Source: Pedobacter cryophilus (GTDB lineage Bacteria > Bacteroidota > Bacteroidia > Sphingobacteriales > Sphingobacteriaceae). From it: DNA of 64,000 nt. The translations under genes were made by a program, and so were the position numbers. Each line of letters begins with the position of its first letter. The stretch's first letter is position 1. This document shows positions 28,500-43,347 of this stretch, in pieces. The stretch lies in assembly GCF_005116455.1 (NCBI RefSeq), contig NZ_SWBP01000004.1, positions 372,001-436,000 of the forward strand. Reading direction: 5' to 3'. The notes beneath the pieces are model-generated. The model ran no database searches. It saw only the letters and a program-made list of their open reading frames with translations, and was not told the DNA's origin.

Positions 28500-28562
28500 T
28501 AATTTAATTTTTTTGAAAAGCAGGGTTAGTACAAATTAAAAGTGCTAATCCTGCTTTTTGTT

Positions 28563-28628
28563 TATAGCCCACGGTTTAAACCGTGGGCTATAAAAATTAT
28601 CATATTTTGGAAACCATTTTAATGGTTT
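28563..28628 (+). repeat. Double-palindrome (REP-like) repeat, copy 1
   Basis: A perfect 30-base palindrome (28563-28592, core CCCACGGTTTAAACCGTGGG) is followed after 18 bases by a second one (28611-28628, AAACCATTTTAATGGTTT). Copies in the same orientation lie at 29761-29823, 30323-30385 and 31147-31211. No T-run follows the hairpins, so they are not ordinary terminators. Confidence 0.85.
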
Positions 28629-28684
28629 TTTAAAAAGTATACTCGTAAATTAACCATTCATAAAATAATTTATCTTCAAACAAA

Positions 28685-29734
28685 ATGAAAGTAGACATTG
28701 TCAACAGTAACCCATCTAAAAAACAGCCACGGGCTGTTATTACTTATGATGTTTATACTAATGGCAATATTATAAAGCAAGAATTACCATTTATTGTAGG
28801 CGTTTTGGCAGATCTTAGTGGCGAAGAAAACTTAGAAATTGCTTTTCCAGCGTATAAAAAAAACAGTTTTATTGAGATAAATAGTGCTAATTTTAAAGAA
28901 GTAATGGGTTTGATAAACCCAAAAATAAATTTTGAAACTATCAGCAGTTTATCGGCAAATACTTATTTAACAAGTGTAGTGTCTTCTTGGTATGGCTTGT
29001 ATAATCTGGTATCAAATATAGCCGCTCATGATAATTTAAAATTGCGGGTATTAAATGTGAGTAAGAAAACTTTGCAAAATGATTTTGAAAAGGAATCAGA
29101 AACTGATCAAAGTATTTTATTTAAAAAAATATACGAAGCAGCATACGGTACGTATAGCGGTGATGGATATAGTTTACTGATAGGCGATTATGGCTTTGAA
29201 GAAAATGCTGTTGATAACCATCTTTTGGAAAAACTCAATCAACTGGGCACAATTTTACATGCACCATTCATAAGTAATAATGAAGAATTCTTATCTGATT
29301 TAGTCCCATTTAAAAACCAACCTCACAGAGATAGCAGAATTAGCGATATTTACTACCTAACAGAAAGTATTTGTAGCGCTTTCGCAATATATAGCTGGCC
29401 AGTAATCTCCAGCCATAAATTATCTTACCTTTTGGTAGCAAATAGATTTGCTCAATACATCAAAGTAATAATAAAAAATAAAATAGGATCTTTTCTTACC
29501 CGCTCAAATATAGAGGACTACTTAAATACTTGGTTGTCTAATTATGTTTTGTTAGATGATCATGCGCCAGAAAATGCTAATGCTTTATTTCCTTTAAGAG
29601 AAGCAAGTATAATTGTTAGTGATATTCCCGAAAAACCTGGAGAATACAAAGCCACTCTATTTATAAAATCACATTTCAAATTAGCAGAACTTACTCAAGC
29701 TATTAGGTTAGAAATTTTATTGCCAAGTGCTTAA
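28685..29734 (+). CDS. Miniature TssB-TssC-like (T6SS contractile sheath) fusion protein
   Basis: A 349-residue protein joining the two sheath subunits of type VI secretion. Residues about 17-85 look like TssB (VITYDVYTNGNIIKQELPFI, then VGVLADLSG). Residues about 100-200 match the TssC N-terminal half (LKLRVLNVSKKTL, ILFKKIYEAAYGTYSG, LLIGDYGFEENAVD, LHAPFIS). Residues 250-349 match its C-terminal part (ANRFAQYIKVIIKNKIGSF, LREASIIV). The large middle region of TssC between HAPF and ANRFAQYLK is mostly missing; full-length TssB and TssC total roughly 650 residues. No other T6SS gene is near. It lies between two REP-like copies. The role is unknown; degraded sheath or a repurposed protein are both possible. 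Confidence 0.75.
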   Translation: MKVDIVNSNPSKKQPRAVITYDVYTNGNIIKQELPFIVGVLADLSGEENLEIAFPAYKKNSFIEINSANFKEVMGLINPKINFETISSLSANTYLTSVVSSWYGLYNLVSNIAAHDNLKLRVLNVSKKTLQNDFEKESETDQSILFKKIYEAAYGTYSGDGYSLLIGDYGFEENAVDNHLLEKLNQLGTILHAPFISNNEEFLSDLVPFKNQPHRDSRISDIYYLTESICSAFAIYSWPVISSHKLSYLLVANRFAQYIKVIIKNKIGSFLTRSNIEDYLNTWLSNYVLLDDHAPENANALFPLREASIIVSDIPEKPGEYKATLFIKSHFKLAELTQAIRLEILLPSA

Positions 29735-29760
29735 TTGTCTGAAAGTTGGATTTTATACCA

Positions 29761-29823
29761 TAGCCTTCGGTTTAAACCGAGGGCTATAAAAATATGCTGT
29801 TTTGGAAACCGTTTTAACGGTTT
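29761..29823 (+). repeat. Double-palindrome (REP-like) repeat, copy 2
   Basis: The first palindrome (29761-29786, one mismatch: TAGCCTTCGG against CCGAGGGCTA) is followed by AAACCGTTTTAACGGTTT (29806-29823). Same orientation and spacing as copy 1; it lies between the mini-TssBC and DUF2237 genes. Confidence 0.85.
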
Positions 29824-29859
29824 AAATTTTTATACAATTTGCTTTAAAATAACTAGTTT

Positions 29860-30240
29860 TTATACTTTAAACTCATGGGCTTTTAATTCTTCTAAAGTGG
29901 CGTAAAGCAAAGCTTTTTCATGGGTAGCCTCTAAAATAACGGGTGGGGCAAAGCCGGCATCAAAAGCTTCTTTCCATCTAGCGGCGCATAAACACCACCT
30001 ATCGCCAGCTTTTAAACTAGGAAATCTACCTGCCGGGTAAGCACTAATTAAATCATTTCCCATGGCTAAGGTAAAAGCTAAAAAAGCATCGGTAACTACT
30101 GCGGCCACCACATGTTTGCCGCTATCTTGCGGACCAGTACAGCAAAAACCATCTCTAAAAAAGCCAGTTAATGGGTTAGTACCCGCTATTTGTAAAGGTG
30201 TACCTAAAACGTTTTTATCAATTGGGTGGGTTGGGTTCAT
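29860..30240 (-). CDS. DUF2237 family protein
   Basis: Protein of 126 residues matching my recollection of DUF2237. It has NVLGTPLQIAGTNPLTGFFR near the start, GFCCTGPQDSGKHVVAAVVT, then FLAFTLAMGNDLISAYP, and CLCAARWKEAFDAGFAPPV. The conserved Cys and His residues may bind metal, but no activity is established to my knowledge. Normal length and cytoplasmic. It stands alone between REP-like copies 2 and 3, in the opposite direction to the mini-TssBC gene. Confidence 0.85.
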   Translation of the reverse strand: MNPTHPIDKNVLGTPLQIAGTNPLTGFFRDGFCCTGPQDSGKHVVAAVVTDAFLAFTLAMGNDLISAYPAGRFPSLKAGDRWCLCAARWKEAFDAGFAPPVILEATHEKALLYATLEELKAHEFKV

Positions 30241-30322
30241 GTTTAATAGTTATGCATCTACAACTGTTTACATTGCAATATGTTCTTTAAGGACCTAGAA
30301 TTGAGCAGGAATTTCATAATAA

Positions 30323-30385
30323 TAGCCCACGGTTTAAACCGTGGGCTATATAAATATTGGGTTTTAGAAACCGTTTTAACGGTTT
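30323..30385 (+). repeat. Double-palindrome (REP-like) repeat, copy 3
   Basis: A perfect 26-base palindrome (30323-30348) is followed by AAACCGTTTTAACGGTTT (30368-30385). The spacer is almost identical to that of copy 4. Confidence 0.87.
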
Positions 30386-30448
30386 AGAAATCTTTTAAAT
30401 CAGAAATAGAGTTTGAATGATATAATTAATAAGTCTGGAGAATCTTGC

Positions 30449-30790
30449 CTATTTGTTGCTTTTAATGATTTCTATTTCCTTTGCTAAAACAGGAATATTA
30501 TTCTGAATAATTCCCCAAATCATTTCTGGCTCAACGGAATCGTATGCATGTGAAATAATATTTCGTAGTCCAATAATGTTTTTTGCTGATGAAATTTTAA
30601 GGTCAGCATCAATTTCAATCATCTTTCTGATAGCTTCACCAATGATTTCTAAATCTCTTTCTATTGCTCTTTGTAAAATAATGTCGGATTGGAAAGAATG
30701 GAAGTTATTATTGGTTTTAGCTTTTATAGTTTCAATTTCTTGAATGATACTTTGAATATCAAGAATATACTTTAATATTTTAGGCTGCAT
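30449..30790 (-). CDS. hepT: HepT-like toxin (DUF86, HEPN RNase)
   Basis: Helical HEPN-domain protein of 113 residues with the catalytic R-x4-H-x-Y motif intact: Arg76, His81 and Tyr83 in RNIISHAYDS. HepT acts as an RNase-type toxin that its MntA partner inactivates by AMPylating the motif Tyr (family knowledge). It overlaps the upstream mntA by 11 bases. Length is normal. Confidence 0.88.
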   Translation of the reverse strand: MQPKILKYILDIQSIIQEIETIKAKTNNNFHSFQSDIILQRAIERDLEIIGEAIRKMIEIDADLKISSAKNIIGLRNIISHAYDSVEPEMIWGIIQNNIPVLAKEIEIIKSNK

Positions 30791-31088
30791 ATAAATCTAC
30801 CTTTGAGCGGTCTATTTCTTCAATCAAGACAGGGTTTTTGAGTGATTTTCTTGAAACTAAATCAATTTTTTTGCCCATTAATTTTTCTAGCTTTTCTAAC
30901 AATGAAAAGTAATTGTCTGCATAATCTAGTACTTCAATTTTATCAGAAAACTGAACCAAAAAATCAATGTCGCTATTTTCATGCATCGTATCTTTGGCTG
31001 TAGATCCAAACAAAGCAATAGACTTTACCTGATGCACTTTACAAAGTACAATAATATCATTGAGCTTATCTTCAATTAACTTCATCAT
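30780..31088 (-). CDS. mntA: MntA-type minimal nucleotidyltransferase antitoxin
   Basis: Protein of 102 residues with the MNT signature GSx10DxD: Gly28-Ser29 and Asp40/Asp42 in FGSTAKDTMHENSDIDFLV. As the partner of HepT it transfers AMP to the toxin. Two ATG codons in succession are possible starts. It precedes hepT and overlaps it by 11 bases. The pair sits between REP-like copies 3 and 4. Confidence 0.88.
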   Translation of the reverse strand: MMKLIEDKLNDIIVLCKVHQVKSIALFGSTAKDTMHENSDIDFLVQFSDKIEVLDYADNYFSLLEKLEKLMGKKIDLVSRKSLKNPVLIEEIDRSKVDLYAA

Positions 31089-31146
31089 TTCTACTCAAAG
31101 ATAAATTTTTTAAAAACAATTTTGGATACTTCTTTTGGCTTTAAAT

Positions 31147-31211
31147 TATAGCCCACGGTTTAAACCGTGGGCTATATAAATATTGGGTTTTAGAAACCGT
31201 TTTAACGGTTT
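31147..31211 (+). repeat. Double-palindrome (REP-like) repeat, copy 4
   Basis: A perfect 30-base palindrome (31147-31176) is followed by AAACCGTTTTAACGGTTT (31194-31211). Same orientation as the other three; it closes the repeat-separated gene array. Confidence 0.87.
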
Positions 31212-31264
31212 AAATCTTCGTATATCAAAAATAAGATTTGAATGATGTAATTAGCCTTTTGCTA

Positions 31265-31425
31265 TTCGATATGTTCTGAAAGGCATATCGAATTTTTAAT
31301 ATAGTGGATTTGTAATATACTACTAGCATGTTGAAAAGCAGATTAAAAATCCTTTTTATTTTTAAGTACGAGATGCGCAAGCTAATATTTCGAACAGCAG
31401 GGCATGGAGCTAACATCTCGAACAG
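31265..31425. repeat. TTCGA-stem hairpin repeat cluster, copy A1 (diverged)
   Basis: TTCGATATG and CATATCGAA (31265-31292) form a perfect 9-base stem. About 75 bases on, a diverged ACGAGATGCGCAAGCTAA...TTTCGAA hairpin and a GCTAACATCTCGAACAGC fragment follow. The same order appears at 33055-33185. Apart from this cluster and REP copy 4, 31089-31445 shows no gene. Confidence 0.65.
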
Positions 31426-31445
31426 CTGAGGCATCAATAAAAGCC

Positions 31446-32495
31446 CTAAACTTTATGAGCAGCAATTATTTTTTTAGCAATTACATTAGCAGCATATACT
31501 GCACCATCCATATATCCAGGAAATTCTGGAGCAGACTCAGTGCTAGAAATTAACAATTGGTCATCAAAAAAGGACTGACTAAAAATTGGGTTTCCATTGT
31601 TCTGATGAGGATAATGAAAAACATCAGTTGCTTCAAAAGTGTTTTCTTCTTTGCTCCAAACACATTCTTTATAATCTAAAAATTCGGATGCTTTCTCTCC
31701 AAAAACAGATTTTAATTGCTCAATCACTCTATAACGCCTTTCTACATCATCAATTTGTTTAAAGGATGAATCAATAAATCCACAAAGTGCGTATTTGGAT
31801 CTTTGGTGATTACAATGATCGTATAGTTCTGTGATTGGTCCAGCATTGCTAAATAAAGTTCCAGATCTATTTTTATTTTGCCAAAAAGCTTGTTTATAGG
31901 TTACAGCAATTTTAATGGAATCTTCCATCCAAGTATGAGTTTGTTTAGCTATGCTCATCAAATGGTTTGGTAAACTTGGTTCGAACAAGATTTTTTTTGC
32001 CCATAATTTAGGTGGAATGGCTAAAACAACTTTATTTCCTTCAAACACTTCATTTGTAATTACCTGTACCTTATAATTCAGTAATTTAATTTCCTTAACA
32101 GATTGATTCAGTAATACATCCTCTTTAGCTAATTGCTGATATAAAGTCTTGATTAAATTGAAGGTACCGCCCGAAATCCGGTAACTAGGTGCTTGTTTGG
32201 GTATTTGTATAGTTTCTGCTGCTGAGTTAGCAAAGCGCTGAAAGAATACTTCGCCATCCATATACTGTTCAAAATATTCAATTCCTAATTCGACAAGGAG
32301 TGCTTTTAAATGTTTATGCTCTTTATTAAACCAAGTTGCGCCCATTTCAACGGGGGTATTGTTGGCTCCATAAACTGTATTAATTCTACCACCAATTCTA
32401 TTTCTTGCCTCTAAAATTTTAAAAGGAATACCTTCTTTTTGTAGTCTATAAGCCGTTAAAAGACCAGATAAGCCAGCGCCAATGATGATAATCAT
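31446..32495 (-). CDS. Flavin-containing amine oxidase family protein
   Basis: FAD-dependent oxidoreductase of 349 residues. It opens with the dinucleotide-binding MIIIIGAGLSGLLTAYRL and continues ILEARNRIGGRI and VEMGATWF. A C-terminal SSTESAPEFPGYMDGAVYAA is the FAD-contacting end of the monoamine oxidase family. No signal peptide. It is shorter than typical flavin monoamine oxidases (about 430-500) but has both ends of the fold. The substrate is unknown. Confidence 0.85.
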   Translation of the reverse strand: MIIIIGAGLSGLLTAYRLQKEGIPFKILEARNRIGGRINTVYGANNTPVEMGATWFNKEHKHLKALLVELGIEYFEQYMDGEVFFQRFANSAAETIQIPKQAPSYRISGGTFNLIKTLYQQLAKEDVLLNQSVKEIKLLNYKVQVITNEVFEGNKVVLAIPPKLWAKKILFEPSLPNHLMSIAKQTHTWMEDSIKIAVTYKQAFWQNKNRSGTLFSNAGPITELYDHCNHQRSKYALCGFIDSSFKQIDDVERRYRVIEQLKSVFGEKASEFLDYKECVWSKEENTFEATDVFHYPHQNNGNPIFSQSFFDDQLLISSTESAPEFPGYMDGAVYAANVIAKKIIAAHKV

Positions 32496-32688
32496 ACTGC
32501 AAAAATAATGAAGAAGAAGTCTCGAAAAGTCATAATAAGTACCTTTTAATTTAAAAATAGTTCGTTTCTGGTATTTGTATGGATACAGTTCTCGGTTTTA
32601 TTTTAGAGATTTCAGTAATTAACGAGTATCGAGGCTTTTCCATTACTCAATCCGTAGAAACGCTATCGCTTAATTCTCCGGACAGGGG
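32496..32688. other. Intergenic interval without a gene
   Basis: Noncoding DNA between the amine oxidase and the second hairpin-repeat copy. No open frame, RNA gene or strong terminator was seen. Confidence 0.4.
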
Positions 32689-32747
32689 GGATTGCAAATC
32701 CTTTTTATTTTTGAGTTCGAGATGCGCAAGCTAACATCTCGAACAGC
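32689..32747. repeat. TTCGAGATG hairpin repeat, copy A2
   Basis: A 59-base block identical to 33127-33185. It contains GGATTGCAAATCC and the perfect stem TTCGAGATG / CATCTCGAA (32716-32743) with the loop CGCAAGCTAA. Confidence 0.8.
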
Positions 32748-32749
32748 TT

Positions 32750-32814
32750 GTTCATACACAAAAGCACAAGTCTCCTTACCCTCTTTTCTCACGCCCAGAA
32801 GACTTGCGCCAGTT
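32750..32814. repeat. 65-base repeat overlapping the end of the PLDc_N-like gene, copy 1
   Basis: Matches 33286-33350 at all but one position. On the minus strand it begins AACTGGCGCAAGTCTTCTGG and contains the inverted pair CAAGTCT / AGACTTG. It encodes the C-terminal NWRKSSGREKRG and stop of the small membrane protein at 32776-33006. Confidence 0.8.
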
Positions 32815-33006
32815 AGGCAAAACCACAATTAAAATTGCTGAAAGCCCTCCAATAATAGGTAAAAGCCAAGTTAAAACTAATAGAAAAACTCTTTTAAATA
32901 AAGAGACATCTTTCTTAGCTAAAACTATTATTGTGGCAATTAAAAAGATAACAATTGCACTCAGTACCAAAAGCTTAAATCCCCAAGCAGGAGTTACAAA
33001 GTCCAT
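32776..33006 (-). CDS. Small membrane protein, PLDc_N-like
   Basis: Protein of 76 residues with two hydrophobic helices (about 9-29 and 40-62). It resembles the phospholipase-D nuclease N-terminal (PLDc_N) family, whose members often stand alone in Bacteroidota (LLVLTWLLPIIGGLSAILIV). The last 12 residues and the stop are encoded inside a 65-base intergenic repeat with a second copy at 33286-33350. The tail was therefore probably acquired from the repeat. Function unknown. Confidence 0.6.
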   Translation of the reverse strand: MDFVTPAWGFKLLVLSAIVIFLIATIIVLAKKDVSLFKRVFLLVLTWLLPIIGGLSAILIVVLPNWRKSSGREKRG

Positions 33007-33054
33007 AATTTTAAATTTTAGATACTTATTTATTTACAAAAGTTTCAGTTTCTA

Positions 33055-33185
33055 TTCGATATGTCTGAAAGGCATATCGAATTTTTAATGATTGGATTTA
33101 CAATCTACTAGTATGTTTTAAAAAGCGGATTGCAAATCCTTTTTATTTTTGAGTTCGAGATGCGCAAGCTAACATCTCGAACAGC
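33055..33185. repeat. TTCGA-stem hairpin repeat cluster, copy B
   Basis: Two 9-base perfect stems, TTCGATATG / CATATCGAA (33055-33081) and TTCGAGATG / CATCTCGAA (33154-33181), are separated by a GGATTTACAATC stretch. The second half (33127-33185) is identical to 32689-32747; the whole resembles 31265-31425. Confidence 0.8.
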
Positions 33186-33188
33186 AGG

Positions 33189-33238
33189 TTTTATTGATCC
33201 TGAAAAAAATGGAACACTAAAATTAGTTTGGAGTATAA
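33189..33238. repeat. Island-border repeat, partial copy 1
   Basis: TTTATTGATCCTGAAAAA and AAATTAGTTTGGAGTATAA resemble the distal part of the longer repeats at 35387-35527 and 38603-38752. It lies just beyond the 3' end of the OLD-type gene. Confidence 0.55.
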
Positions 33239-33285
33239 CAGGATTAATCTAAAAACTGTAAACTTATTTTAGAGCGATACAACTG

Positions 33286-33350
33286 GTTCATACACAAAAG
33301 CACAAGTCTCCTTACCATCTTTTCTCACGCCCAGAAGACTTGCGCCAGTT
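33286..33350. repeat. 65-base repeat, copy 2 (fragment of the PLDc_N-like gene tail)
   Basis: One mismatch from 32750-32814. Here it is not attached to an open reading frame and lies 13 bases from the stop codon of the OLD-type gene. Confidence 0.8.
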
Positions 33351-33362
33351 GGTTATGCCTAG

Positions 33363-35303
33363 TTATTTGTATAATTTCTTTTTTATTTCTTCAATCCATT
33401 CTAAATTGCTTCTTTCATTTAAAAAAGGTTTTTTTGCTAATTCTACATACTTTTTAGCAAACAGGATTTTATTGAATCCTTCTTTATCATCAAAAAATTT
33501 CTTCAAAATGTCTTTTTCCTTAGTTGTTAAATCAAAGAAGTTTGCTGAATATTTCTCATCAACTTCTAAATTTTTTTTCAAGAATAAATCTCTGATTTCT
33601 GGATAATTTTCATTTAATTCTTGAAGTGTTTGATAAAAAATTATAGGGTCTAAACAGTCTTCAATTTCTGTTGGCGGATTCATTAATGTATTGTTAACAT
33701 CCACTAAAATTGATTGTTCTTTTCTTAAAACTAATCTTTCAAAAAGTAAATTCTTATCTTTTGTATATTCCGATACTTCAATTCTTTCTTTATCAGTATC
33801 AATTAAGCAAAATACTTTTCCGTTAATTTTGTAATCTGGATCTTTTATTGGTGTTGTTAGATAACTATATATTTTTTTAACTTCTTTAAATCCACCAACT
33901 GGTAAAATACTAAGGTTTTTTTCTTTAATTTCTTTTTCAAAGAAATAGTCAAAATATATTTTTTCAGATTGCCCTTCACACACTATCCAGTAGTATGGTT
34001 TTTCTTGCATTATAGAAATAATTATTGACTGAACTAAATCATTATAGCTCTTAATGTTATAGTCAATTGGCAAAGGTCCTTTATGAAGTTTTCTTGAATG
34101 AAGTATATTTTCTCTATAATTATATAAATTCAAAAATGTACTGGTTATTTCGTTTTTGTTGTTTTTTGTAATTGTAGTAGCACTTCCATTTGTTATTATT
34201 GGCAAGAAGCCATACCAATGTGTTGATACTAAGATTTGATGATTATCTTTACTGATTTTCAATAGTTTGTCAAATTGTTCATAGCAGTTTGAAATATGTA
34301 ATGAAGCTTCTGGCTCGTCAATTGCTAATATAATATTACTTTCACGATCATTGTTTTTTATTAAGAAAGAATAAGCAACATCAATTAGTGCTTTTCTCTT
34401 TTCACCAGAGCTTAGTTCCGAAACAGGTATTGATTTTGAATTTTCAACTTTTTTATTTAAAATTTTAATAGAGAAATATGCTTCAATAATTTTAGAAACT
34501 AAATCAGGCATTGTTAAATTATCTTTATGAGAGCCTTTATAATGATATATTTCTAAAACTTCTTCTATTTCCTTTACAAATTTGCCTAACTGTTTGTTGA
34601 TTTGATTTACTGTTTTTAATGTAATTGCATTTTCTATTTCTTTTTGGATGTTTTTATCCATTAATTTCTGCATATCTTGAGTTTCCAACTTAGTATAAGT
34701 TTGCACATCAGTTTCAACAGGAATATATATGTATGAATAGTGAGAATTTATATATTCATAAAAGCCTTTGAAATATTTTTGTAATTCTGAATCTTCATAT
34801 ATTTTGTTTGGTTTATCATTTATAAATGTAAGTTGATTGTGAAATGAACCAAAATAAATACCTGGATCATTATATTTTTTACCAACAAATAATAAAAGAT
34901 ACTCTTCGGAATCATAATTGATTAAAAGTTCGTCACGATGTTTATCAAAATCCCCTCTTCCTTTGAAGGTTGATTTCCAAAGAAAATCAGATAATAATTT
35001 TGCTTTATTAAATTGTTCTAAATCCTGTTTGTTTTCTTTTCGTAACTTATCTTTATGAATTAAAAAAACGGGAACAATAAATGGAAAATTATCACCGCTA
35101 ATTCCGTCAGATTTTGCTTCATTATTTATTGGCCAATCTGTAGCGCCTTTTTTATTAAAACAAAAATCAAGAGCTTCTAATATTGAACTTTTGCCACAAC
35201 CATTTTCTCCAATTATACTTGAAAATCCAACACCTTCTGAAATTGGTAAATAATTAATTCCTTTGTATATTTTAAAGTGTCTTAAAAAAATAGATACTAT
35301 CAT
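33363..35303 (-). CDS. OLD-type ATP-dependent nuclease (AAA ATPase + TOPRIM)
   Basis: Protein of 646 residues with the architecture of OLD-family and GajA-like defence nucleases. An N-terminal ABC-type ATPase has Walker A GENGCGKSS (32-40), signature SELSSGEKR (295-303), Walker B NIILAIDEPEASLH (323-336) and switch His361. A C-terminal TOPRIM domain has Glu443/Glu447 in CEGQSEKIY, Gly470-471, and the DxD pair Asp502/Asp504 in CLIDTDKE. All catalytic residues seem present. No helicase or UvrD-like partner gene is adjacent, so classic Gabija is not supported. It follows the Zorya-like operon by 225 bases on the same strand. It may be an independent class-1 OLD nuclease or an added effector. Confidence 0.85.
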   Translation of the reverse strand: MIVSIFLRHFKIYKGINYLPISEGVGFSSIIGENGCGKSSILEALDFCFNKKGATDWPINNEAKSDGISGDNFPFIVPVFLIHKDKLRKENKQDLEQFNKAKLLSDFLWKSTFKGRGDFDKHRDELLINYDSEEYLLLFVGKKYNDPGIYFGSFHNQLTFINDKPNKIYEDSELQKYFKGFYEYINSHYSYIYIPVETDVQTYTKLETQDMQKLMDKNIQKEIENAITLKTVNQINKQLGKFVKEIEEVLEIYHYKGSHKDNLTMPDLVSKIIEAYFSIKILNKKVENSKSIPVSELSSGEKRKALIDVAYSFLIKNNDRESNIILAIDEPEASLHISNCYEQFDKLLKISKDNHQILVSTHWYGFLPIITNGSATTITKNNKNEITSTFLNLYNYRENILHSRKLHKGPLPIDYNIKSYNDLVQSIIISIMQEKPYYWIVCEGQSEKIYFDYFFEKEIKEKNLSILPVGGFKEVKKIYSYLTTPIKDPDYKINGKVFCLIDTDKERIEVSEYTKDKNLLFERLVLRKEQSILVDVNNTLMNPPTEIEDCLDPIIFYQTLQELNENYPEIRDLFLKKNLEVDEKYSANFFDLTTKEKDILKKFFDDKEGFNKILFAKKYVELAKKPFLNERSNLEWIEEIKKKLYK

Positions 35304-35386
35304 TTATTATATTAAGTTGTTAAATTCTCCGCGTCTTTTATAATTAGGCATAACTAGTTGCTGTACGCTAACTATAGCTTATATTT

Positions 35387-35527
35387 TTCTATCACATGGA
35401 AGCTATGTGTTACTCATATCATATTATCTTATCATAGGGCTATTTTTTTGTCAAATTCCTCTGGTTTCATTTTAAAGATTTTGGTAATCCTTAAAAAGGG
35501 ACACTCAAACTAATTTGGGATATATTT
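35387..35527. repeat. Island-border repeat, copy 2 (between OLD and HNH genes)
   Basis: Contains TTCTATCACATGGAAGC, ACTCATATCATATTA, CTCTGGTTTCATTTTA and CAAACTAATTTGGG. It aligns along its length with 38603-38752, which lies on the other side of the three-gene Zorya-like module. By eye roughly three quarters of bases agree. No open frame is conserved. Confidence 0.7.
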
Positions 35528-35528
35528 T

Positions 35529-36377
35529 TCATTTCTTATAGTCCGCTAAATGCTTATTACCAACTCGCCTTAATTCATCTTCAAATAATTTGATAAAGTC
35601 AACAAGCTTTTGGCGAGGAGAACCTTTTGAATAATTCTCTTTATGATATCTGTCTACACTTGCATGACATAATACACATAAACACTTAAAATTATCTTCA
35701 TCATTGTTTTTTGGATTTCCGTCAACGTGATGTGTTTCCAAGTAATAACCGTTTACTAAGTTTTGATTGAGATTAATGCCACAATCTTCACAAGTGAATT
35801 TCTTTTTCATTCTGTAATTTCGACTTGTATCATACCATTCCGGAGTATAGCCCCAAAAGTCAGTTGAAACTTCTTTAGGCAATTCGCTATCATAAAATTC
35901 TCCTTCAATTTGGTCATTAAGAATGAACTTTTCTCGATATTCTGTAGTTGTCATTCCTCTTTCAGTTTCATAATGAATTTTATTACAGTTTCCACATAAT
36001 GTAAGTTCTTTGGTAACCCCATCACGATCTTCCATTGTTATAGTTTCAGTAGAAAAGACATAATGTCCATTAAAATTTTTCCTTTGTTTTTGATCCTGTA
36101 TTGTTTGACAATTGATAATATGAAACTTCGGTACTATTGTTCCTGTTTGTTCAAATGTCCTTTGACTGTATCCACTTTCTATATAAAGAAATCCTTTGTG
36201 TTTATTACCTTTCTTGTCTGTAAATGTTATGCCATCAAGGTTTATTTCAACACTTTGATCAAGTTGAGCCTTCGTAAGTTTTTCCGTGATAGGCTTGAAT
36301 TTGGAATTAATCCTATCAGGATCAATACCTAAGTGTATTTGCACAAAAACCTTTAATTCGTTGAAATCGTAAACCAT
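35529..36377 (-). CDS. HNH endonuclease, ZorE-like component of a Zorya-type system
   Basis: Protein of 282 residues. An uncharacterised N-terminal part (1-120) is followed by a zinc-binding pair C128-x2-C131, a second pair C196-x2-C199, the nuclease HH at 216-217 (ETHHVDGNPKNN) and C234-x2-C237-H (CVLCH). It is thus a zinc-stabilised HNH nuclease. Its ATG shares one base with the zorB stop (TAATG), so it is translationally coupled to the motor-like pair. In type II Zorya the third gene, zorE, is an HNH nuclease, and both position and domain agree. Assignment as ZorE itself is inference. Confidence 0.75.
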   Translation of the reverse strand: MVYDFNELKVFVQIHLGIDPDRINSKFKPITEKLTKAQLDQSVEINLDGITFTDKKGNKHKGFLYIESGYSQRTFEQTGTIVPKFHIINCQTIQDQKQRKNFNGHYVFSTETITMEDRDGVTKELTLCGNCNKIHYETERGMTTTEYREKFILNDQIEGEFYDSELPKEVSTDFWGYTPEWYDTSRNYRMKKKFTCEDCGINLNQNLVNGYYLETHHVDGNPKNNDEDNFKCLCVLCHASVDRYHKENYSKGSPRQKLVDFIKLFEDELRRVGNKHLADYKK

Positions 36378-37090
36378 TATTTACTCATTTGTTTAAGAGC
36401 TTCTCTAACCAATTGGTCACTTGTTGTAACTATTTTAAATTCAACTCTTCTACACTTATCATTGTCAGGTGGTAAATTAGATGTAGCAGTTAAATGTCCG
36501 TTTTTATCGAGTGTTCTTCCAAATGATAATCCATTTGCTGTTAGCCAAAACTTCAATCTTTCTTTTTCTGTAATTTTTAGATTTTCATAATAAAGAGTAT
36601 TGAATAAGAACTTCATAACATTTCTAGTTCTATTTTGTGAAAGTTCAACATTATATATATAATCGCCTTCAATATCTGTATGTCCTTCTATTCGTACTTC
36701 TGCAATTTTATCTCTATATTGTGGCTTTAGAATTATAGCTAAATAGCGAGGGAAGAAATTAGTTAAAACGTTTTGAAACTCCAGTTTTAAATCACTTTTG
36801 TTGTAGTCAAACAATACTTTTTCGTTTACAAATTTTATTGATAAGTCTGCAGTATCAATCATCGCATCCCATTTGTCCTTCTTGAAATCATCTTTGAATT
36901 CTGTTTGCAATTCCTTCAATAATTCAACTTTAGTCTGTTCAAAGTCTTTAAACATCTTATCTTTTTCTGCTTGCTTATTTCTAACATCCATCATGTAGGA
37001 TATTGAAATAAATAAGAAAATAACCATCAAAACGGTCATCAAATCAGACAGAGGAATCCAATAGTTATCCTTTTGTTTTGGTGATGCCAT
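36377..37090 (-). CDS. zorB: ZorB-like protein (MotB/OmpA family)
   Basis: Inner-membrane protein of 237 residues. A single N-terminal transmembrane helix (about 14-32) carries an Asp at its start (Asp16 in PLSDLMTVLMVIF), the place of the proton-binding Asp of MotB stators. A short coiled coil (about 38-72) leads to an OmpA/MotB peptidoglycan-binding domain (about 85-232) with EGHTD (135-139) and LSQNRTRNV (Arg154, Arg156). It lies three bases after the zorA-like gene and overlaps the HNH gene. With ZorA it should form an ion-driven stator-like complex. Confidence 0.85.
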   Translation of the reverse strand: MASPKQKDNYWIPLSDLMTVLMVIFLFISISYMMDVRNKQAEKDKMFKDFEQTKVELLKELQTEFKDDFKKDKWDAMIDTADLSIKFVNEKVLFDYNKSDLKLEFQNVLTNFFPRYLAIILKPQYRDKIAEVRIEGHTDIEGDYIYNVELSQNRTRNVMKFLFNTLYYENLKITEKERLKFWLTANGLSFGRTLDKNGHLTATSNLPPDNDKCRRVEFKIVTTSDQLVREALKQMSK

Positions 37091-37093
37091 TTT

Positions 37094-38506
37094 TTAGTTT
37101 TTTAGTTCGTTGAATATTTCGGTTGTTTTTTTCTGATACTCCAAAACCATTGCTTGAAGCACTTTGTCAAGGCTCATAAAACTTTCACTCAATCGTTTCT
37201 TAAATTCACTATCTAATTTTTCAACATCTTTAGAAAGTTTATCATTGCTTTTTGCGATGATATTTACTCCATCATTCATTCTTGTTTCAATGTCTTTCCA
37301 GAATTTACCGTTGATGTCTTTAATTTGTTCAATTTCCTTCAATTTATCAAGAAGTTGGTTTATTGATTCTTGGAAACCCTTCTCCTTTTTCATATAGTCT
37401 GCAAGTTGTGAGCTTGAGTTTTCAATGTTGTTTGTGGCTAATTGAAGCTTGCTCGCTAGTTCAGTGAATTTTTTATCTTCAATCATTACCTTCTTTAATT
37501 CTGTAATCATTTGTTGAAGTATCGAGTTGTTATCTGTAAGTGATTTTGTATTTGTAGAAATTTCTAGAATATTTTTTGATGAAGTTTCAAGGTTTGAAGT
37601 AGTTTGATTAAATTGTGAAATAAGAATTGCAATTTGTTCTTTATTCTGCTTTTGCCAGTCATTAAGGTTTTTTACACTATTATTTAATTCTTCAAAATTC
37701 TCCTTTACCAACCTTTGAATAAGTTCATTCATCTGGGTGTTAAAGTCGGTAATGACTTTCTCCATAGCCTCAACTAGTGCCTTTGTATTGTTTTCTGTAA
37801 GGAGCTTGGTAAACTCATCAAATTTAGTTCGAATAATTTCATTGTTTTTATTCATTGTTTCAACTATAAAAGTTGAATTTGTTGATGTTAACTTTGCATA
37901 TTCTCCTTGTTCAGCTCTTAATTTTTGAATTTGTGTTAATAAGCTTGTTTCACTATCTCCTCCTAAAGCAGTTTGAATTTTAGATAGCTTTTCAGTCTGC
38001 TCAGTCATTTGATTTTTAATTTTTGCAAACTGTGTAGCCAAACTTTCGTCACCATCTCCAATTATTGAACTGTTAAGTGTTTTAAAGTTGATTGCATTTT
38101 CTGAACTTGCCTTTTTAGTGTGGTCAATAAGTGTATTTAACGCTGTTATTTCATCACTAGAAACAGCTTTGTCTTTTTCATTTGTATGCTGAACTAAAGC
38201 GGTCAATTTCGAAAAAATGAGTAATCCGATTATCCCAAATATTGATGCAATAAATGCTGTTTTTAATCCATTAAGTAATTCAGGAATACTGTCATCCATA
38301 TGTTTTACGTCAAAGTAAAATAATCCATATGCAATACCTAGAAATGTTCCAAGAATTCCTAAAGTCGGGAAAACTTGTGGTATCGAATCAAATATGTATG
38401 GGTTTATTTCATTTGGAGTTCTCTTTGCTCGAAGTAAATAGTAAATACTAAAAATTGTCCAAATGACTAAAAGTCCATATGGTAAAAGTTCGATTGCTTG
38501 TTTCAT
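37094..38506 (-). CDS. zorA: ZorA-like protein (MotA/ExbB family with long coiled-coil tail)
   Basis: Protein of 470 residues. Transmembrane helices lie at about 5-25, 44-65 and 77-103. The MotA/ExbB core is FPTLGILGTFLGIAYGL and LLNGLKTAFIASIFGIIGLL. The remaining 360 residues are almost entirely predicted coiled coil (heptads rich in Leu/Ile/Asn/Glu/Lys), which would form the cytoplasmic tail typical of ZorA and absent from flagellar MotA. It is the first gene of a three-gene minus-strand operon, zorA-zorB-HNH. A role in sensing phage DNA entry is family knowledge, not shown here. Confidence 0.82.
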   Translation of the reverse strand: MKQAIELLPYGLLVIWTIFSIYYLLRAKRTPNEINPYIFDSIPQVFPTLGILGTFLGIAYGLFYFDVKHMDDSIPELLNGLKTAFIASIFGIIGLLIFSKLTALVQHTNEKDKAVSSDEITALNTLIDHTKKASSENAINFKTLNSSIIGDGDESLATQFAKIKNQMTEQTEKLSKIQTALGGDSETSLLTQIQKLRAEQGEYAKLTSTNSTFIVETMNKNNEIIRTKFDEFTKLLTENNTKALVEAMEKVITDFNTQMNELIQRLVKENFEELNNSVKNLNDWQKQNKEQIAILISQFNQTTSNLETSSKNILEISTNTKSLTDNNSILQQMITELKKVMIEDKKFTELASKLQLATNNIENSSSQLADYMKKEKGFQESINQLLDKLKEIEQIKDINGKFWKDIETRMNDGVNIIAKSNDKLSKDVEKLDSEFKKRLSESFMSLDKVLQAMVLEYQKKTTEIFNELKN

Positions 38507-38602
38507 TCTTATTCTTTTTAAATTGTTTATTCGTTTGTTGTTGTGTCGTTGTTAAGGTTTCCTGTAACTAGACGCTCTATAAACACTTTATAGCGTATAG
38601 CT
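38507..38602. other. Upstream region of the Zorya-like operon
   Basis: AT-rich noncoding DNA upstream of zorA. No clear TAnnTTTG box was found on the minus strand at the expected distance. Confidence 0.4.
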
Positions 38603-38752
38603 TTCTATCAGATGGATACCATTCGCTACTCATCTCATATTAACATATCATAGTGCTAATTTTTTTGTGCCTCAAAGTTCTCTGGTTTCATTTTTAACAT
38701 TTCATTGATTCTGAAAAATAGGCCGTTGAAACTAGTTTGGAACATAATACAC
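38603..38752. repeat. Island-border repeat, copy 3 (upstream of zorA)
   Basis: TTCTATCAGATGGATACC, CTACTCATCTCATATTA, CTCTGGTTTCATTTTTA and GAAACTAGTTTGGAACATA parallel the copy at 35387-35527 in order and spacing. The two copies are direct repeats bracketing the zorA-zorB-HNH module. Confidence 0.7.
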
Positions 38753-38833
38753 TTGATCGGGTATAGCTTAAACTTGCTGTTGGCAGTGGTTTCAGTTACC
38801 CTTAAAAAACAACAAATGACCAGTTTATACGCT

Positions 38834-39214
38834 CTATTTTAAAACATGGTGAGCTAAAACTTTTTGAACGTCATATACATTAACAGATTTATTGAATTGC
38901 TTTTTTATACTGGGTTGTGCTTCGCTGGAGATCCAAATTTTTAATTCAGCATCTAGGTCAAACGTACCAGAGGTTTCAATGCTAAATCTGGAAATACTTT
39001 TATAAGTAATAGACTTATATTCGGTTTTACTGCCTGTTAAACCTTGCACATCAACTAAAATCAGCCTCTTGGTGGTAAAAATAAAAGTGTCCCTAATGAG
39101 CTTAAAGCCTAATTCAATTTCTTCACCTTCTATAAGTAGCTGTCCGTATTTTTTTGTTAATTCTTCTTGACTTACCGCACCTGCATTTCCAAGAATAGCC
39201 GAAAATAATCCCAT
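38834..39214 (-). CDS. Bacterial PH-domain protein
   Basis: Cytoplasmic protein of 126 residues made of one bacterial PH domain (bPH, YvbH/DUF type). The pattern is GEEIELGFKLIRDTFIFTTKRLILVDVQG, then SITYKSISRFSIETSGTFD and a C-terminal helix ending LAHHVLK. No function can be given beyond the fold. It lies just outside the defence island on the same strand, with a 327-base gap to zorA. Confidence 0.85.
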   Translation of the reverse strand: MGLFSAILGNAGAVSQEELTKKYGQLLIEGEEIELGFKLIRDTFIFTTKRLILVDVQGLTGSKTEYKSITYKSISRFSIETSGTFDLDAELKIWISSEAQPSIKKQFNKSVNVYDVQKVLAHHVLK

Positions 39215-39494
39215 AATTTTAATTTTTGTTTACTATGTTGAATTAAACTTCAATTAAATAGCTGCTATACGCCATTCATCTCATTCTCCTCCAAAGTAAA
39301 AATTTAAAACCAGTAGAAAGATTTCATAGTTAAAATACCATTTTACTGGTACTGGTTTTTTGCGCTAAGGATGGTAGGTGTTTAGTATGGCGGCGAAGCA
39401 AGCCCATACCGTAACAAAGTGAAGCACCGCACAGCCTGGTGGCTGCTTTTTGGGTGGCTTTGGTGAGAGAGGGAAAAAAGCAGACAAGCGCCCA
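39215..39494. other. Intergenic interval with a GC-richer patch
   Basis: No gene was found. The stretch 39365-39480 is notably richer in G and C than its surroundings. It holds inverted pairs TATGG / CCATA (about 39388-39411) and CAGCC-TGGT-GGCTG followed by CTTTTT (39433-39452). It may be a repeat remnant or a small structured RNA. Confidence 0.3.
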
Positions 39495-39529
39495 AATAAA
39501 AAGCCCGAGAATAGATATCCTCGGACTTT
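39495..39529 (-). terminator. Terminator of the pfkA-kinase-gapA operon
   Basis: On the minus strand AAGTCCGAG and CTCGGGCTT pair around a 10-base loop (GATATCTATT) and are followed by TTTTATTT. It lies about 60 bases past the gapA stop. Confidence 0.7.
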
Positions 39530-39588
39530 GGTGTGTAATTAAATAAGTCTTAACTTTTGACTTAAAACCTACAACTTAAAACTTTCAA

Positions 39589-40593
<1,005 letters not shown>

Positions 40594-41445
40594 TTAATTT
40601 TTGTTTGCGTAATAATTCAATAAATTATAAATAGGTTCTTTTATAACAGAACTGATGTTGATTTTCTTTTCTTTAGCTACTTCCCTTAAATAATCTTGAA
40701 AGTTGGCGGCTACTGTGCCTACAAAGTAAACTGGATGTTTGCCTCCATATTGTTTTGACAGCGGAATTAAATAGGTATCCATAAATAAGCTAAAACCATC
40801 TTTGATAAATTCTTTCACAAAAGGCTCATCTCTGTTTTCGCTAAAAAATTCGGTAAAGGAGCTAAAAAATATGTTTGGATGTGCTTGTTTGTATATTTTA
40901 TCTAAGATGAGTCTTCGGTCTAAATCGTATTTTTTTTCTAATAAGGTTTGGATAGGAGCGGGCAGGGTTTCATTTAAATAGGCTTTAATTAATTTTTTAC
41001 CTAACCAGTTTGATGAACCTTCATCGCCTAAGGCAAAACCTAATCCGTAGTTGTTTTCTATTACTTTTTTACCGTCAAAAAAGCCAACATTAGAGCCTCC
41101 GCCAACAATGCAAACAATACCAGGAACATCATTACATGAAGCTTTTGCTGCGGCTTCTAAATCATGTGATACAAATACTTTACTAAATCTAAAGAATTGG
41201 GAAAGTGCATTTTTAATGATTTCGTTTCTTTCTAAAGAGGATGCACCTGCACCAAAAAAGTATATTTTTTTAATTTGTTCGGCGTAGTTTATGAGTTTGG
41301 TATTCTTATTTAGCAATTGTAAAATGAATTTCTCATCATTAAAAAAAGGATTGATACCGTTGGTGCGCACATCAATAGTGTCCATTCCTTTATCAGAAAG
41401 TTTCCAATTTGCATATCTAGAACCACTATAAACAACAGCTATCAT
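40594..41445 (-). CDS. BadF/BadG-type sugar kinase (N-acetylglucosamine kinase-like), paralogue 1
   Basis: ASKHA-fold kinase of 283 residues. The ATP-binding phosphate motifs are VYSGSRYANWKL (phosphate 1, atypical), IVCIVGGGSNVG and ALGDEGSSNWLGKKLI. It resembles N-acetylglucosamine kinase-type members of the BadF/BadG/BcrA/BcrD family. The first motif lacks the usual DGGSTKT seen in its paralogue at 43348, where DxGxTKT binds phosphate. Activity may therefore be altered. It is embedded between pfkA and gapA with gaps of two and six bases. Confidence 0.75.
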   Translation of the reverse strand: MIAVVYSGSRYANWKLSDKGMDTIDVRTNGINPFFNDEKFILQLLNKNTKLINYAEQIKKIYFFGAGASSLERNEIIKNALSQFFRFSKVFVSHDLEAAAKASCNDVPGIVCIVGGGSNVGFFDGKKVIENNYGLGFALGDEGSSNWLGKKLIKAYLNETLPAPIQTLLEKKYDLDRRLILDKIYKQAHPNIFFSSFTEFFSENRDEPFVKEFIKDGFSLFMDTYLIPLSKQYGGKHPVYFVGTVAANFQDYLREVAKEKKINISSVIKEPIYNLLNYYANKN

Positions 41446-41447
41446 AA

Positions 41448-42428
41448 TTATGCGAGTATGGTTGCCATTTCTAAAAGATCTTCTTCCAACTTAAATTCAT
41501 GGTCGGTAAGGGCTTCTTTTAAATCTGTTAGTTTTATTTCATTACTTCTTAAGCCTACCATTTTTCTGGTTTCGCCTCTTAATAATGCTTTCACTGCTGC
41601 AAAACCCATTCTACAGCCTAAAATTCTATCAAAACTACTAGGGCTGCCACCTCTTTGCAGGTGACCTAAAATGGTTACTTTGGTATCGTAAAAGTCAAAA
41701 GTTTCTTTTACTTTTTTGGCTACATTAAATGCTCCGCCATTTTTATCGCCTTCGGCAACTATTACAATACTAGAAGATTTTTTTTGTGCTGCTCCTTCTT
41801 CTAAAGTTTTAATTAAATCTATTATGGCGGTATCTTTTTCGGGCATCATAATGGCTTCTGCGCCACTAGCAATACCAGCTCTAAGCGCTATACAGCCTGC
41901 ATCTCTGCCCATTACTTCAATAAAAAATAAACGGTCGTGAGATTCGGCGGTATCTCTAATTTTATCTATGGCTTCTATTACGGTATTTGTTGCGGTGTCA
42001 AATCCTAAGGTAAAATCAGAACCATAAAGATCATTATCTATGGTGCCGGGCACACAAATTACCGGAATATTATAAATGCCCGAGAATCTTTCGGCTCCGG
42101 TAAAGGTGCCGTCTCCGCCAATAGCAACCAATGCATCAATACCGTTAAGTTTTAAATTATCGTAAGCTTTTTGCATTCCCTCTGGCGTTCTGAAATCTAA
42201 ACAGCGGGCAGTTTTTAAAATGGTTCCTCCTAATTGCATAATGTTACTTACAGAATGTCTAGACATTTCTGTAATATTATTATCAATCATGCCCTGGTAA
42301 CCTTGTTTTATACCGGCAACTTCGCAGCCGAAATGTAGTGCAGTTCTTACTACGGCTCTTATACAAGCATTCATTCCGGGGGCATCTCCACCTGATGTAA
42401 AAACTGCGATTTTTTTGATTTTAGACAT
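41448..42428 (-). CDS. pfkA: ATP-dependent 6-phosphofructokinase
   Basis: Glycolytic enzyme of 326 residues. It has the N-terminal VFTSGGDAPGMNACIRA, AIGGDGTFTGA (ATP/Mg), PGTIDNDLYGSD with the catalytic Asp, and the substrate region EVMGRDAGCIALRAG. Glycine at the GGDGT position indicates ATP rather than pyrophosphate as donor. It is the first gene of the pfkA-kinase-gapA operon and is divergent from an NrtR-like regulator. Confidence 0.96.
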   Translation of the reverse strand: MSKIKKIAVFTSGGDAPGMNACIRAVVRTALHFGCEVAGIKQGYQGMIDNNITEMSRHSVSNIMQLGGTILKTARCLDFRTPEGMQKAYDNLKLNGIDALVAIGGDGTFTGAERFSGIYNIPVICVPGTIDNDLYGSDFTLGFDTATNTVIEAIDKIRDTAESHDRLFFIEVMGRDAGCIALRAGIASGAEAIMMPEKDTAIIDLIKTLEEGAAQKKSSSIVIVAEGDKNGGAFNVAKKVKETFDFYDTKVTILGHLQRGGSPSSFDRILGCRMGFAAVKALLRGETRKMVGLRSNEIKLTDLKEALTDHEFKLEEDLLEMATILA

Positions 42429-42555
42429 AAAGATTTTGGGTCTTCGGTTTGGAGTAGCTAATATAGGGTGTATTTTTTACACTAAGCAATTTTTTCTCGA
42501 TTATTTTTTTAAACTTTGCAGATATCAAGCTTAATAAAATTATAACGCTATTAAT

Positions 42556-43254
42556 TTGGAAAATTTACCGCTACAATTTGAATCTATATTTTCTGTAGAT
42601 TGTGTGATCTTTGGTTTTGATGAGGGGGAGTTGAGGATTTTACTGATAGAAAGAAACGAAGAACCTTTTAAAGGATGGTTTGCTTTGCCCGGTAATTTGG
42701 TAGACAATACTGAAAGTATTGAATCGGCGGCAGAACGTATTTTGTACGAATTAACTGGTTTAAAGGGTATTTTTATGGAACAGTTTTACACTTTTGGAGC
42801 GCTGGGCAGGCATCCTTTAGGTAGAGTAATTACGGTTGCATATTATGCGATGATTAGATTAAACGGACAAAAAGATGTAAAGCCTGTTACAGATTATGCT
42901 AGGCAGGCGGTGTGGATGCCTGTTAAAGATATGCCCGAATTGGCCTTTGACCATAGCCGCATTTTTAGAAAAAGCTTTGAGAAAATTAAGAACAAAATAA
43001 GCTATCAGCCGATAGCTTTTGAGTTGCTGCCAGAAAAATTTACGCTTACGCAGCTACAAAATTTATATGAGGTTATTTTAGATAAGAAATTAGATAAAAG
43101 AAACTTTAGAAAGAAAATGCTGGCTTATGATATTTTGAAAGAGCTGGATGAAAAACAAAAAGGGGTTTCTTACCGAGCGGCCAAGCTGTACAAGTTTGAT
43201 AAAAGGAAATATGCCAAGCACTTTAATAAAGAATTGTCTTTTTCTAAAGAGTAG
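42556..43254 (+). CDS. NrtR-like Nudix-fold transcriptional regulator
   Basis: Protein of 232 residues: a Nudix fold (about 10-140) followed by a winged-helix-like C-terminal domain (about 150-232, KFTLTQLQNLYEVILDKKLDKRNFRKKM). The Nudix box reads GNLVDN...SAAERILYELTGL: the RE and EE pairs of REUXEEXG are Arg-Ile and Glu-Leu, so hydrolysis is unlikely. That combination is typical of NrtR-family regulators, some of which control sugar use in Bacteroidota. The start is TTG at 42556. It is divergent from pfkA, the likely target (inference). Confidence 0.82.
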   Translation: MENLPLQFESIFSVDCVIFGFDEGELRILLIERNEEPFKGWFALPGNLVDNTESIESAAERILYELTGLKGIFMEQFYTFGALGRHPLGRVITVAYYAMIRLNGQKDVKPVTDYARQAVWMPVKDMPELAFDHSRIFRKSFEKIKNKISYQPIAFELLPEKFTLTQLQNLYEVILDKKLDKRNFRKKMLAYDILKELDEKQKGVSYRAAKLYKFDKRKYAKHFNKELSFSKE

Positions 43255-43295
43255 CTTTTCTAAAAACCAAAAATTGAACTCAGGTTATTAAAAAT

Positions 43296-43335
43296 AAAAA
43301 AATCCCTTAACACAATTGTTTAAGGGATTTTTTTT
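43296..43335. terminator. Bidirectional intrinsic terminator
   Basis: AAAAAATCCCTTAA and TTAAGGGATTTTTT pair over 14 bases around a short loop. It serves the convergent Nudix regulator (plus) and sugar kinase (minus) genes. Confidence 0.88.
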
Positions 43336-43347
43336 GAGCTTATTAAG

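What the first reader, a model, noticed from the sequence alone, without database searches (positions are those of the whole stretch)
33363..38506. Zorya-like defence operon (zorA-zorB-HNH) next to an OLD-type nuclease
The MotA-like protein has the long cytoplasmic coiled coil specific to ZorA. The MotB-like protein keeps the stator Asp and OmpA motif. The coupled third gene is a zinc HNH nuclease, as in type II Zorya. A same-strand ATPase-TOPRIM nuclease follows after 225 bases. The four could form an extended Zorya variant or two stacked systems.
Basis: partly seen in the sequence, partly recalled or inferred. Interest (0 to 1): 0.75.

Follow-up and report, generated by a model that had tools for sequence, protein, structure and literature searches.

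The report
Type II Zorya beside separate OLD nuclease
This bacterium carries an ordinary three-gene Zorya anti-phage system with, right behind it, an OLD-type nuclease gene that elsewhere stands apart from Zorya, so these look like two neighbouring defences rather than one new four-gene system.

Summary
Three form a type II Zorya operon, zorA-zorB-zorE: PADLOC ZorA2 3.3e-111, ZorB2 6.5e-72, ZorE2 1.6e-54. The best solved-structure match of ZorA and ZorB is 8VVI. ZorB keeps the stator Asp16 (13 of 13 aligned). ZorE keeps N225, N229, H238 and H245; three other positions mutated in the E. coli protein differ. The fourth gene is an intact-looking AAA_15 + OLD-like TOPRIM protein. It does not travel with Zorya. 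Of 114 other OLD loci examined, none has an adjacent zor gene in the DNA fetched; one (L134) has a type I zorAB 5-7 kb away on the other strand. None of 32 other Zorya-type loci shows an OLD relative. OLD orthologues 80-88% identical stand without zor in Flavobacterium and Pedobacter; others sit inside BREX-1 or beside or within type I restriction genes. Verdict: a canonical Zorya II plus a promiscuous single-gene OLD module. Open lead: a repeat of about 155 bases, 76% identical, upstream of both zorA and the OLD gene.

The parts
37094..38506 (-). zorA (ZorA2), 470 aa: MotA/ExbB-type motor protein with a long C-terminal tail
   Evidence: PADLOC ZorA2 3.3e-111 over residues 11-459; Pfam MotA_ExbB 22.6 bits, just under its cut-off of 22.9; best solved match 8vvi_F 2.6e-23
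36377..37090 (-). zorB (ZorB2), 237 aa: MotB-type protein with stator Asp16 and an OmpA-type domain
   Evidence: PADLOC ZorB2 6.5e-72; Pfam OmpA 4e-9; best solved match 8vvi_A 6.8e-30; Asp16 in 13 of 13 aligned sequences
35529..36377 (-). zorE (ZorE2), 282 aa: HNH-type nuclease, overlaps zorB by one base
   Evidence: PADLOC ZorE2 1.6e-54; N225, N229, H217, C128, C131, C196, C199 and C237 invariant in 11 aligned ZorE; mapping to mutated E. coli residues
33363..35303 (-). OLD-type gene, 646 aa: AAA_15 ATPase + OLD-like TOPRIM; judged a separate module
   Evidence: Pfam AAA_15 76.8 bits and OLD-like_TOPRIM 26.3 bits, both above cut-off; invariant residues in 32 sequences; AlphaFold2 model, mean pLDDT 82.9; neighbourhood tests
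38589..38746 (-). upstream repeat, copy before zorA
   Evidence: 76% identical to 35373-35524 (E 5.7e-24); as query, matches only itself and that copy in the own genome at E <= 0.01
35373..35524 (-). upstream repeat, copy between zorE and the OLD gene
   Evidence: pieces of it recur at other intergenic places of the own genome

Best explanation
A type II Zorya operon followed by an unrelated single-gene OLD defence. Shown by sequence: identity of ZorA2, ZorB2 and ZorE2, open frames, conserved key residues. Inferred from published work on other Zorya systems: ZorA and ZorB form a 5:2 inner-membrane ion-driven motor; the peptidoglycan-binding domain of ZorB senses envelope disturbance when a phage injects; ion flow moves the ZorA tail, which recruits the ZorE nickase, and ZorE nicks DNA. 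Also inferred: the OLD protein is an ATP-controlled TOPRIM nuclease that works on its own trigger and is a neighbour because defence genes gather in the same variable region.
For: PADLOC types; 8VVI as best solved match of both motor proteins; stator Asp and ZorE residues. Separateness: in one sample of 395 genomes ZorB matched 12 and OLD 4, only the window's own genome in both; of 80 OLD loci from genome contigs one has a ZorB match, not adjacent; 0 of 28 viral and 0 of 2 plasmid OLD loci have zor genes; 0 of 32 Zorya-type loci have an OLD match. OLD orthologues of 80-88% identity against a best ZorB relative of 58% point to different histories. The OLD family also sits in BREX-1 and among type I restriction genes. 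Published mechanism: abstract and passages of PMC11890865.
Against: Same strand, 225 bases apart, no terminator-like site called between them, and a shared upstream repeat, so a common control is possible. Co-occurrence was sampled, not exhaustive: one search kept 80 of 136 relatives, one search scored at most 3 candidates per genome, and several contigs end close to the genes (L018 about 0.4 kb after zorE). Two of three genes fall far below NCBIfam equivalog cut-offs and so does the third, so function is assumed from kinship. Nothing was tested in cells.
Confidence: 0.87

Rival explanations
1. Extended Zorya: the OLD protein is a fourth, co-regulated effector or guard that works together with ZorE.
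For: Same strand and 225-base spacing; shared upstream repeat. Zorya II is reported to synergise with another defence, Druantia III, in a RecBCD-dependent way (preprint PMC13192584, passages), and passages of a review tie OLD proteins to killing of recBC cells (PMC10568477). One other Bacteroidia zorABE locus, L022, is followed by a different AAA_15 ATPase.
Against: 0 of 114 other OLD loci have an adjacent zor gene in the DNA fetched and 0 of 32 other Zorya-type loci have an OLD match. The ATPase of L022 had no match to the OLD protein in the blastp and is closest to NsnB.
Confidence: 0.07
2. The fourth gene is a fused PARIS protein (AriAB) rather than an OLD nuclease; still a separate system.
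For: Best PADLOC family is AriA, 4.1e-27; AriA chains are the top hits of the profile against solved structures, weakly (2.5e-5).
Against: The fused AriAB model scores only 1.8e-7. The TOPRIM part is OLD-like by Pfam. The Foldseek list is led by Retron-Eco8 and GajA, and AriA is not among the 50 rows shown, though all TM-scores are low.
Confidence: 0.2
3. The motor pair is a gliding, secretion or transport motor and the HNH gene is unrelated.
For: MotA/ExbB-type and OmpA-type domains are shared with envelope motors.
Against: PADLOC ZorA2, ZorB2 and ZorE2 with E-values of 1e-54 or better, and Zorya structures as best solved matches.
Confidence: 0.02

Closest known systems
Zorya type II (zorA-zorB-zorE)
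   Same: Gene content, gene order, profile families, stator Asp, ZorE key residues
   Different: Divergent: 118, 126 and 59 bits against NCBIfam cut-offs of 700, 400 and 600. ZorE is 282 aa against 367 aa in E. coli L028 and lacks its C-terminal part in the alignment.
Class 1 OLD (single-gene ATPase-TOPRIM nuclease)
   Same: Both domains in one chain, no conserved partner gene in 80 loci
   Different: Lies beside another defence system here and in several relatives, whereas a review describes class 1 as not proximal to other defence genes (PMC10568477, passages). Only low TM-score matches to solved OLD-type proteins.
PARIS (AriA, AriB or fused AriAB)
   Same: Related ATPase domain
   Different: TOPRIM in the same chain; weak match to the fused model, 1.8e-7
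Gabija (GajA + GajB) and Retron-Eco8
   Same: ATPase-TOPRIM make-up; best Foldseek matches
   Different: No helicase or reverse transcriptase gene among the ORFs listed around it in 28000-44000; no Rfam match above gathering score in 28000-40000

Membership tests
Zorya type II | ZorA: MotA-like protein with long cytoplasmic tail | tested here: met
   PADLOC ZorA2 over residues 11-459; coiled-coil-like matches of the tail to tropomyosin chains
Zorya type II | ZorB: transmembrane stator Asp and peptidoglycan-binding OmpA-type domain | tested here: met
   Asp16 in 13 of 13, aligned with position 26 of 8qyd_F; OmpA domain
Zorya type II | ZorE: HNH nuclease coupled to zorAB | tested here: met
   PADLOC ZorE2 1.6e-54. 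Of seven E. coli residues named in the preprint (E99, N234, H235, N238, L239, H247, H253) four are identical here (N225, N229, H238, H245) and three differ (D95, D226, F230)
Zorya type II | anti-phage activity, ion flow, recruitment of ZorE | not testable with these tools
   needs experiments
Extended Zorya including the OLD gene | OLD gene recurrently next to zorABE | tested here: not met
   0 of 114 other OLD loci adjacent to zor, 0 of 32 other Zorya-type loci with OLD, in the DNA fetched
Class 1 OLD | ABC-type ATPase and TOPRIM in one chain with intact motifs | tested here: met
   motif roles are recalled
Class 1 OLD | single gene without a partner | tested here: inconclusive
   no other protein cluster occurs in more than 10 of 80 loci, but the gene is embedded in other defence operons in some
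PARIS | separate ariA and ariB, or AriAB fusion | tested here: inconclusive
   AriA 4.1e-27, AriAB fusion 1.8e-7; no tree made

The most novel reading that the evidence does not exclude
In this lineage the OLD nuclease has come under the same upstream control as Zorya (the shared repeat) and works with it as a second, TOPRIM-based effector or as a guard of the host end-processing nuclease: a Zorya-OLD partnership parallel to the reported Zorya II-Druantia III synergy.
Probability: 0.07. Interest if true: 0.5.

Novelty: new member of a known kind. Interest (0 to 1): 0.2.

Why it matters
It adds a well-preserved but divergent type II Zorya, and shows that its OLD neighbour belongs to a family found next to or inside Zorya, BREX and type I restriction gene sets. 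That is a caution against reading adjacency as a new multi-gene system, and it makes OLD-plus-neighbour pairs a testable set for synergy.

Tried and rejected
Extended four-gene Zorya: rejected on co-occurrence. Envelope motor: rejected. Integron-like origin of the repeats: the integron-integrase model gave 10 matches in this genome, none over its cut-off, and rang in 14 of 14 control genomes, so it says nothing; folding single strands of the repeats was not pursued. Retron RNA: no Rfam match above gathering score in 28000-40000. Promoter-like sites were near chance, 39 against 32.3 (sd 5.3) in shuffles; terminator-like 5 against 2.2 (sd 1.6), none called between zorE and the OLD gene. ZorE model from one sequence: pLDDT 35, unusable. 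ZorB and ZorA trees give the window rows no starred support, so no ancestry is claimed. The neighbour table picked a wrong ORF in several of the 80 loci and is not used for counts. The organism was not identified; window ORFs against the ORFs of the 80 named loci gave, besides the OLD gene, only weak matches.

Full report
What is there. Four same-strand (minus) genes: 37094-38506, 36377-37090, 35529-36377 and 33363-35303. The first three are tightly packed (3-base gap, then a one-base overlap); the fourth starts 225 bases further on.

The Zorya part. PADLOC names the proteins ZorA2 (3.3e-111), ZorB2 (6.5e-72) and ZorE2 (1.6e-54). NCBIfam gives the same names, but far below its equivalog cut-offs (118 of 700, 126 of 400, 59 of 600 bits), so this is a divergent member. 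The best solved match of both motor proteins is 8VVI (ZorB 6.8e-30; ZorA 2.6e-23). 8VVI and 8VVN were deposited with a paper on type I and type II ZorAB (PMC11890865, abstract and passages); the 378-residue ZorA chain of 8VVI agrees with the type II protein of Sulfuricurvum kujiense described there. Asp16 of ZorB is present in 13 of 13 aligned sequences and aligns with position 26 of 8qyd_F, the type I ZorB. A preprint reports mutants of E. coli ZorE (PMC13192584, passages); the E. coli ZorE of L028 carries the named residue at 7 of 7 positions checked, and the window has the same residue at 4 (N225, N229, H238, H245) and a different one at 3 (D95, D226, F230). Pfam shows no HNH match in the window ZorE or in the three other ZorE proteins scanned.

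The OLD part. AAA_15 and OLD-like_TOPRIM both exceed Pfam cut-offs. In 32 aligned sequences G35, G37, K38, S298, G300, E301, D329, E330, H362, E443, D502 and D504 are invariant; reading them as Walker, signature and TOPRIM residues is from recalled motifs. An AlphaFold2 model on that alignment (mean pLDDT 82.9, pTM 0.77) matches Retron-Eco8 and Gabija GajA best (E 3e-14, TM-scores 0.30-0.36), which says shared domains, not the same arrangement.

One system or two? (1) Sampled genomes: ZorB matched 12 of 395 at E <= 1e-10, OLD 4 of 395 at E <= 1e-20 (at most 3 candidates scored per genome); only the window's own genome is in both. ZorE matched 15 of 395 at E <= 0.001, several of them only over a short HNH stretch. 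In the order sample ZorB matched 5 of 400 at E <= 1e-20. (2) OLD loci: one search found 136 relatives and kept 80. One of the 80, L134 (Pseudomonas fluorescens), has a ZorB match; PADLOC makes it type I ZorA1/ZorB1, on the other strand, with zorA about 5 kb and zorB about 7 kb from the OLD gene and a type I restriction specificity gene in between. None of 28 viral loci and neither of two plasmid loci (L024, L027; of 16 plasmid records) has a zor match. L048-L051 have none except an 81-residue match in a 642-aa protein of L051, which I take for another OmpA-type protein. Sum: 114 loci, none adjacent, within fetched flanks of up to about 8-10 kb that are shorter on some contigs. (3) Zorya-type loci: 32 (L016-L023, L025, L026, L028-L030, L052, L053, L162-L165, L219-L231), 23 with A, B and E matches, 0 with an OLD match; several end close by, L018 about 0.4 kb after zorE. 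(4) Divergence: OLD orthologues at 80, 85 and 88% identity in Pedobacter and Flavobacterium have no zor match; the best ZorB relative found is 58%, and a ZorE pattern scan found no relative in genome contigs, though that scan reaches close relatives only.

Where the OLD family lives. Clustering all ORFs of the 80 loci, the OLD cluster covers 79 and no other cluster more than 10. On an Acinetobacter plasmid it lies between pglX and pglZ of BREX-1 (40% identity by tblastn). In L133 it lies between hsdS and hsdR, in L146 between hsdM and hsdS; in L093, L100 and L134 it is next to restriction genes. A second copy, 39% identical over 580 residues, is elsewhere in the window's genome. The review PMC10568477 (passages) describes class 1 OLD as single genes not near other defence genes and leaves fused AriAB versus class 1 open; this family sits between those descriptions.

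Mechanism. For Zorya II, by analogy with PMC11890865: a peptidoglycan-sensing, ion-driven ZorAB motor whose ZorA tail recruits the ZorE nickase. Type I work by Hu et al. 2025 is recalled and seen only as a cited reference; the paper is not held. The OLD protein most likely acts alone as an ATP-regulated TOPRIM nuclease. None of this was tested for the window's proteins.

A lead left open. The stretch before zorA (38589-38746) and the one before the OLD gene (35373-35524) are homologous (76%, E 5.7e-24). With the zorA copy as query only these two places in the genome match at E <= 0.01. Pieces of the OLD-side copy recur at other intergenic places of this genome, one just before the second OLD gene, and were not found in any locus from another genome fetched at E <= 1e-3. 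It may be a shared control region or a dispersed repeat.

Print. I found no report of a Zorya-OLD pair in listings for Zorya with ZorE (7 papers), Zorya/ZorA/OLD family nuclease (22 papers, 20 listed) and Zorya with Flavobacterium (3 papers); of these only passages of PMC11890865, PMC13192584, PMC8565338 and PMC12904381 were read.

Verdict. An ordinary, intact-looking type II Zorya and a separate OLD gene in a variable region; neighbouring genes are patchy in the genus too (bPH gene in 4 of 18 genomes at E <= 0.001, amine oxidase in 3 of 18 at E <= 1e-60, own genome included). New member of a known kind, low interest.

Noticed in passing
window 38589-38746 and 35373-35524; weak third stretch 39249-39284: Homologous upstream stretches (76%) before zorA and before the OLD gene; a 36-base, 72% stretch also lies just upstream of the bPH gene. 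Each of the two good copies holds a short ATG frame beginning MKPE.F (read).
   Followed up: partly
window 31331-31401, 32680-32814, 33118-33188, 33279-33350: Dispersed palindrome-rich repeats flank the OLD gene's downstream side; a query from there matches 24 places in the own genome.
   Followed up: partly
L052, L053, L162, L163, L164, L165: Zorya loci in the order zorB-zorA-zorC-zorD whose ZorB is closest to the ZorB2 profile although the operon is type I; only L052 was profiled, the rest judged by gene order and similarity. L165 looks degraded.
   Followed up: partly
L054 4292-9982: A ZorB-like gene followed by a 1675-aa TmtA-family gene (2.5e-149): a possible motor pair with another effector.
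   Followed up: no
L024 9001-10935; L133 7992-9926; L146 8001-9974; L093; L100; L134: OLD-family genes inside BREX-1 and inside or next to type I restriction genes: a guest gene of several defence systems.
   Followed up: partly
L022 866-4909: zorABE followed on the same strand by a 604-aa AAA_15 ATPase closest to NsnB and a 334-aa gene.
   Followed up: partly
L025 8701-11383: Prevotella plasmid: zorE overlaps a gene annotated as FtsK translocase with an SspH match.
   Followed up: no
window 28685-29734: One 349-aa frame with VipA, VipB and VipB_2 matches in a row: a fused contractile-sheath protein.
   Followed up: no
window 30449-31088: HepT-like and nucleotidyltransferase gene pair, a likely toxin-antitoxin pair; the second matches PADLOC PDC-S09.
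   Followed up: no
L137 8001-9968: OLD relative on a Gracilibacteria contig shows 29 stops under table 11, which would fit the TGA recoding of that group (recalled).
   Followed up: no
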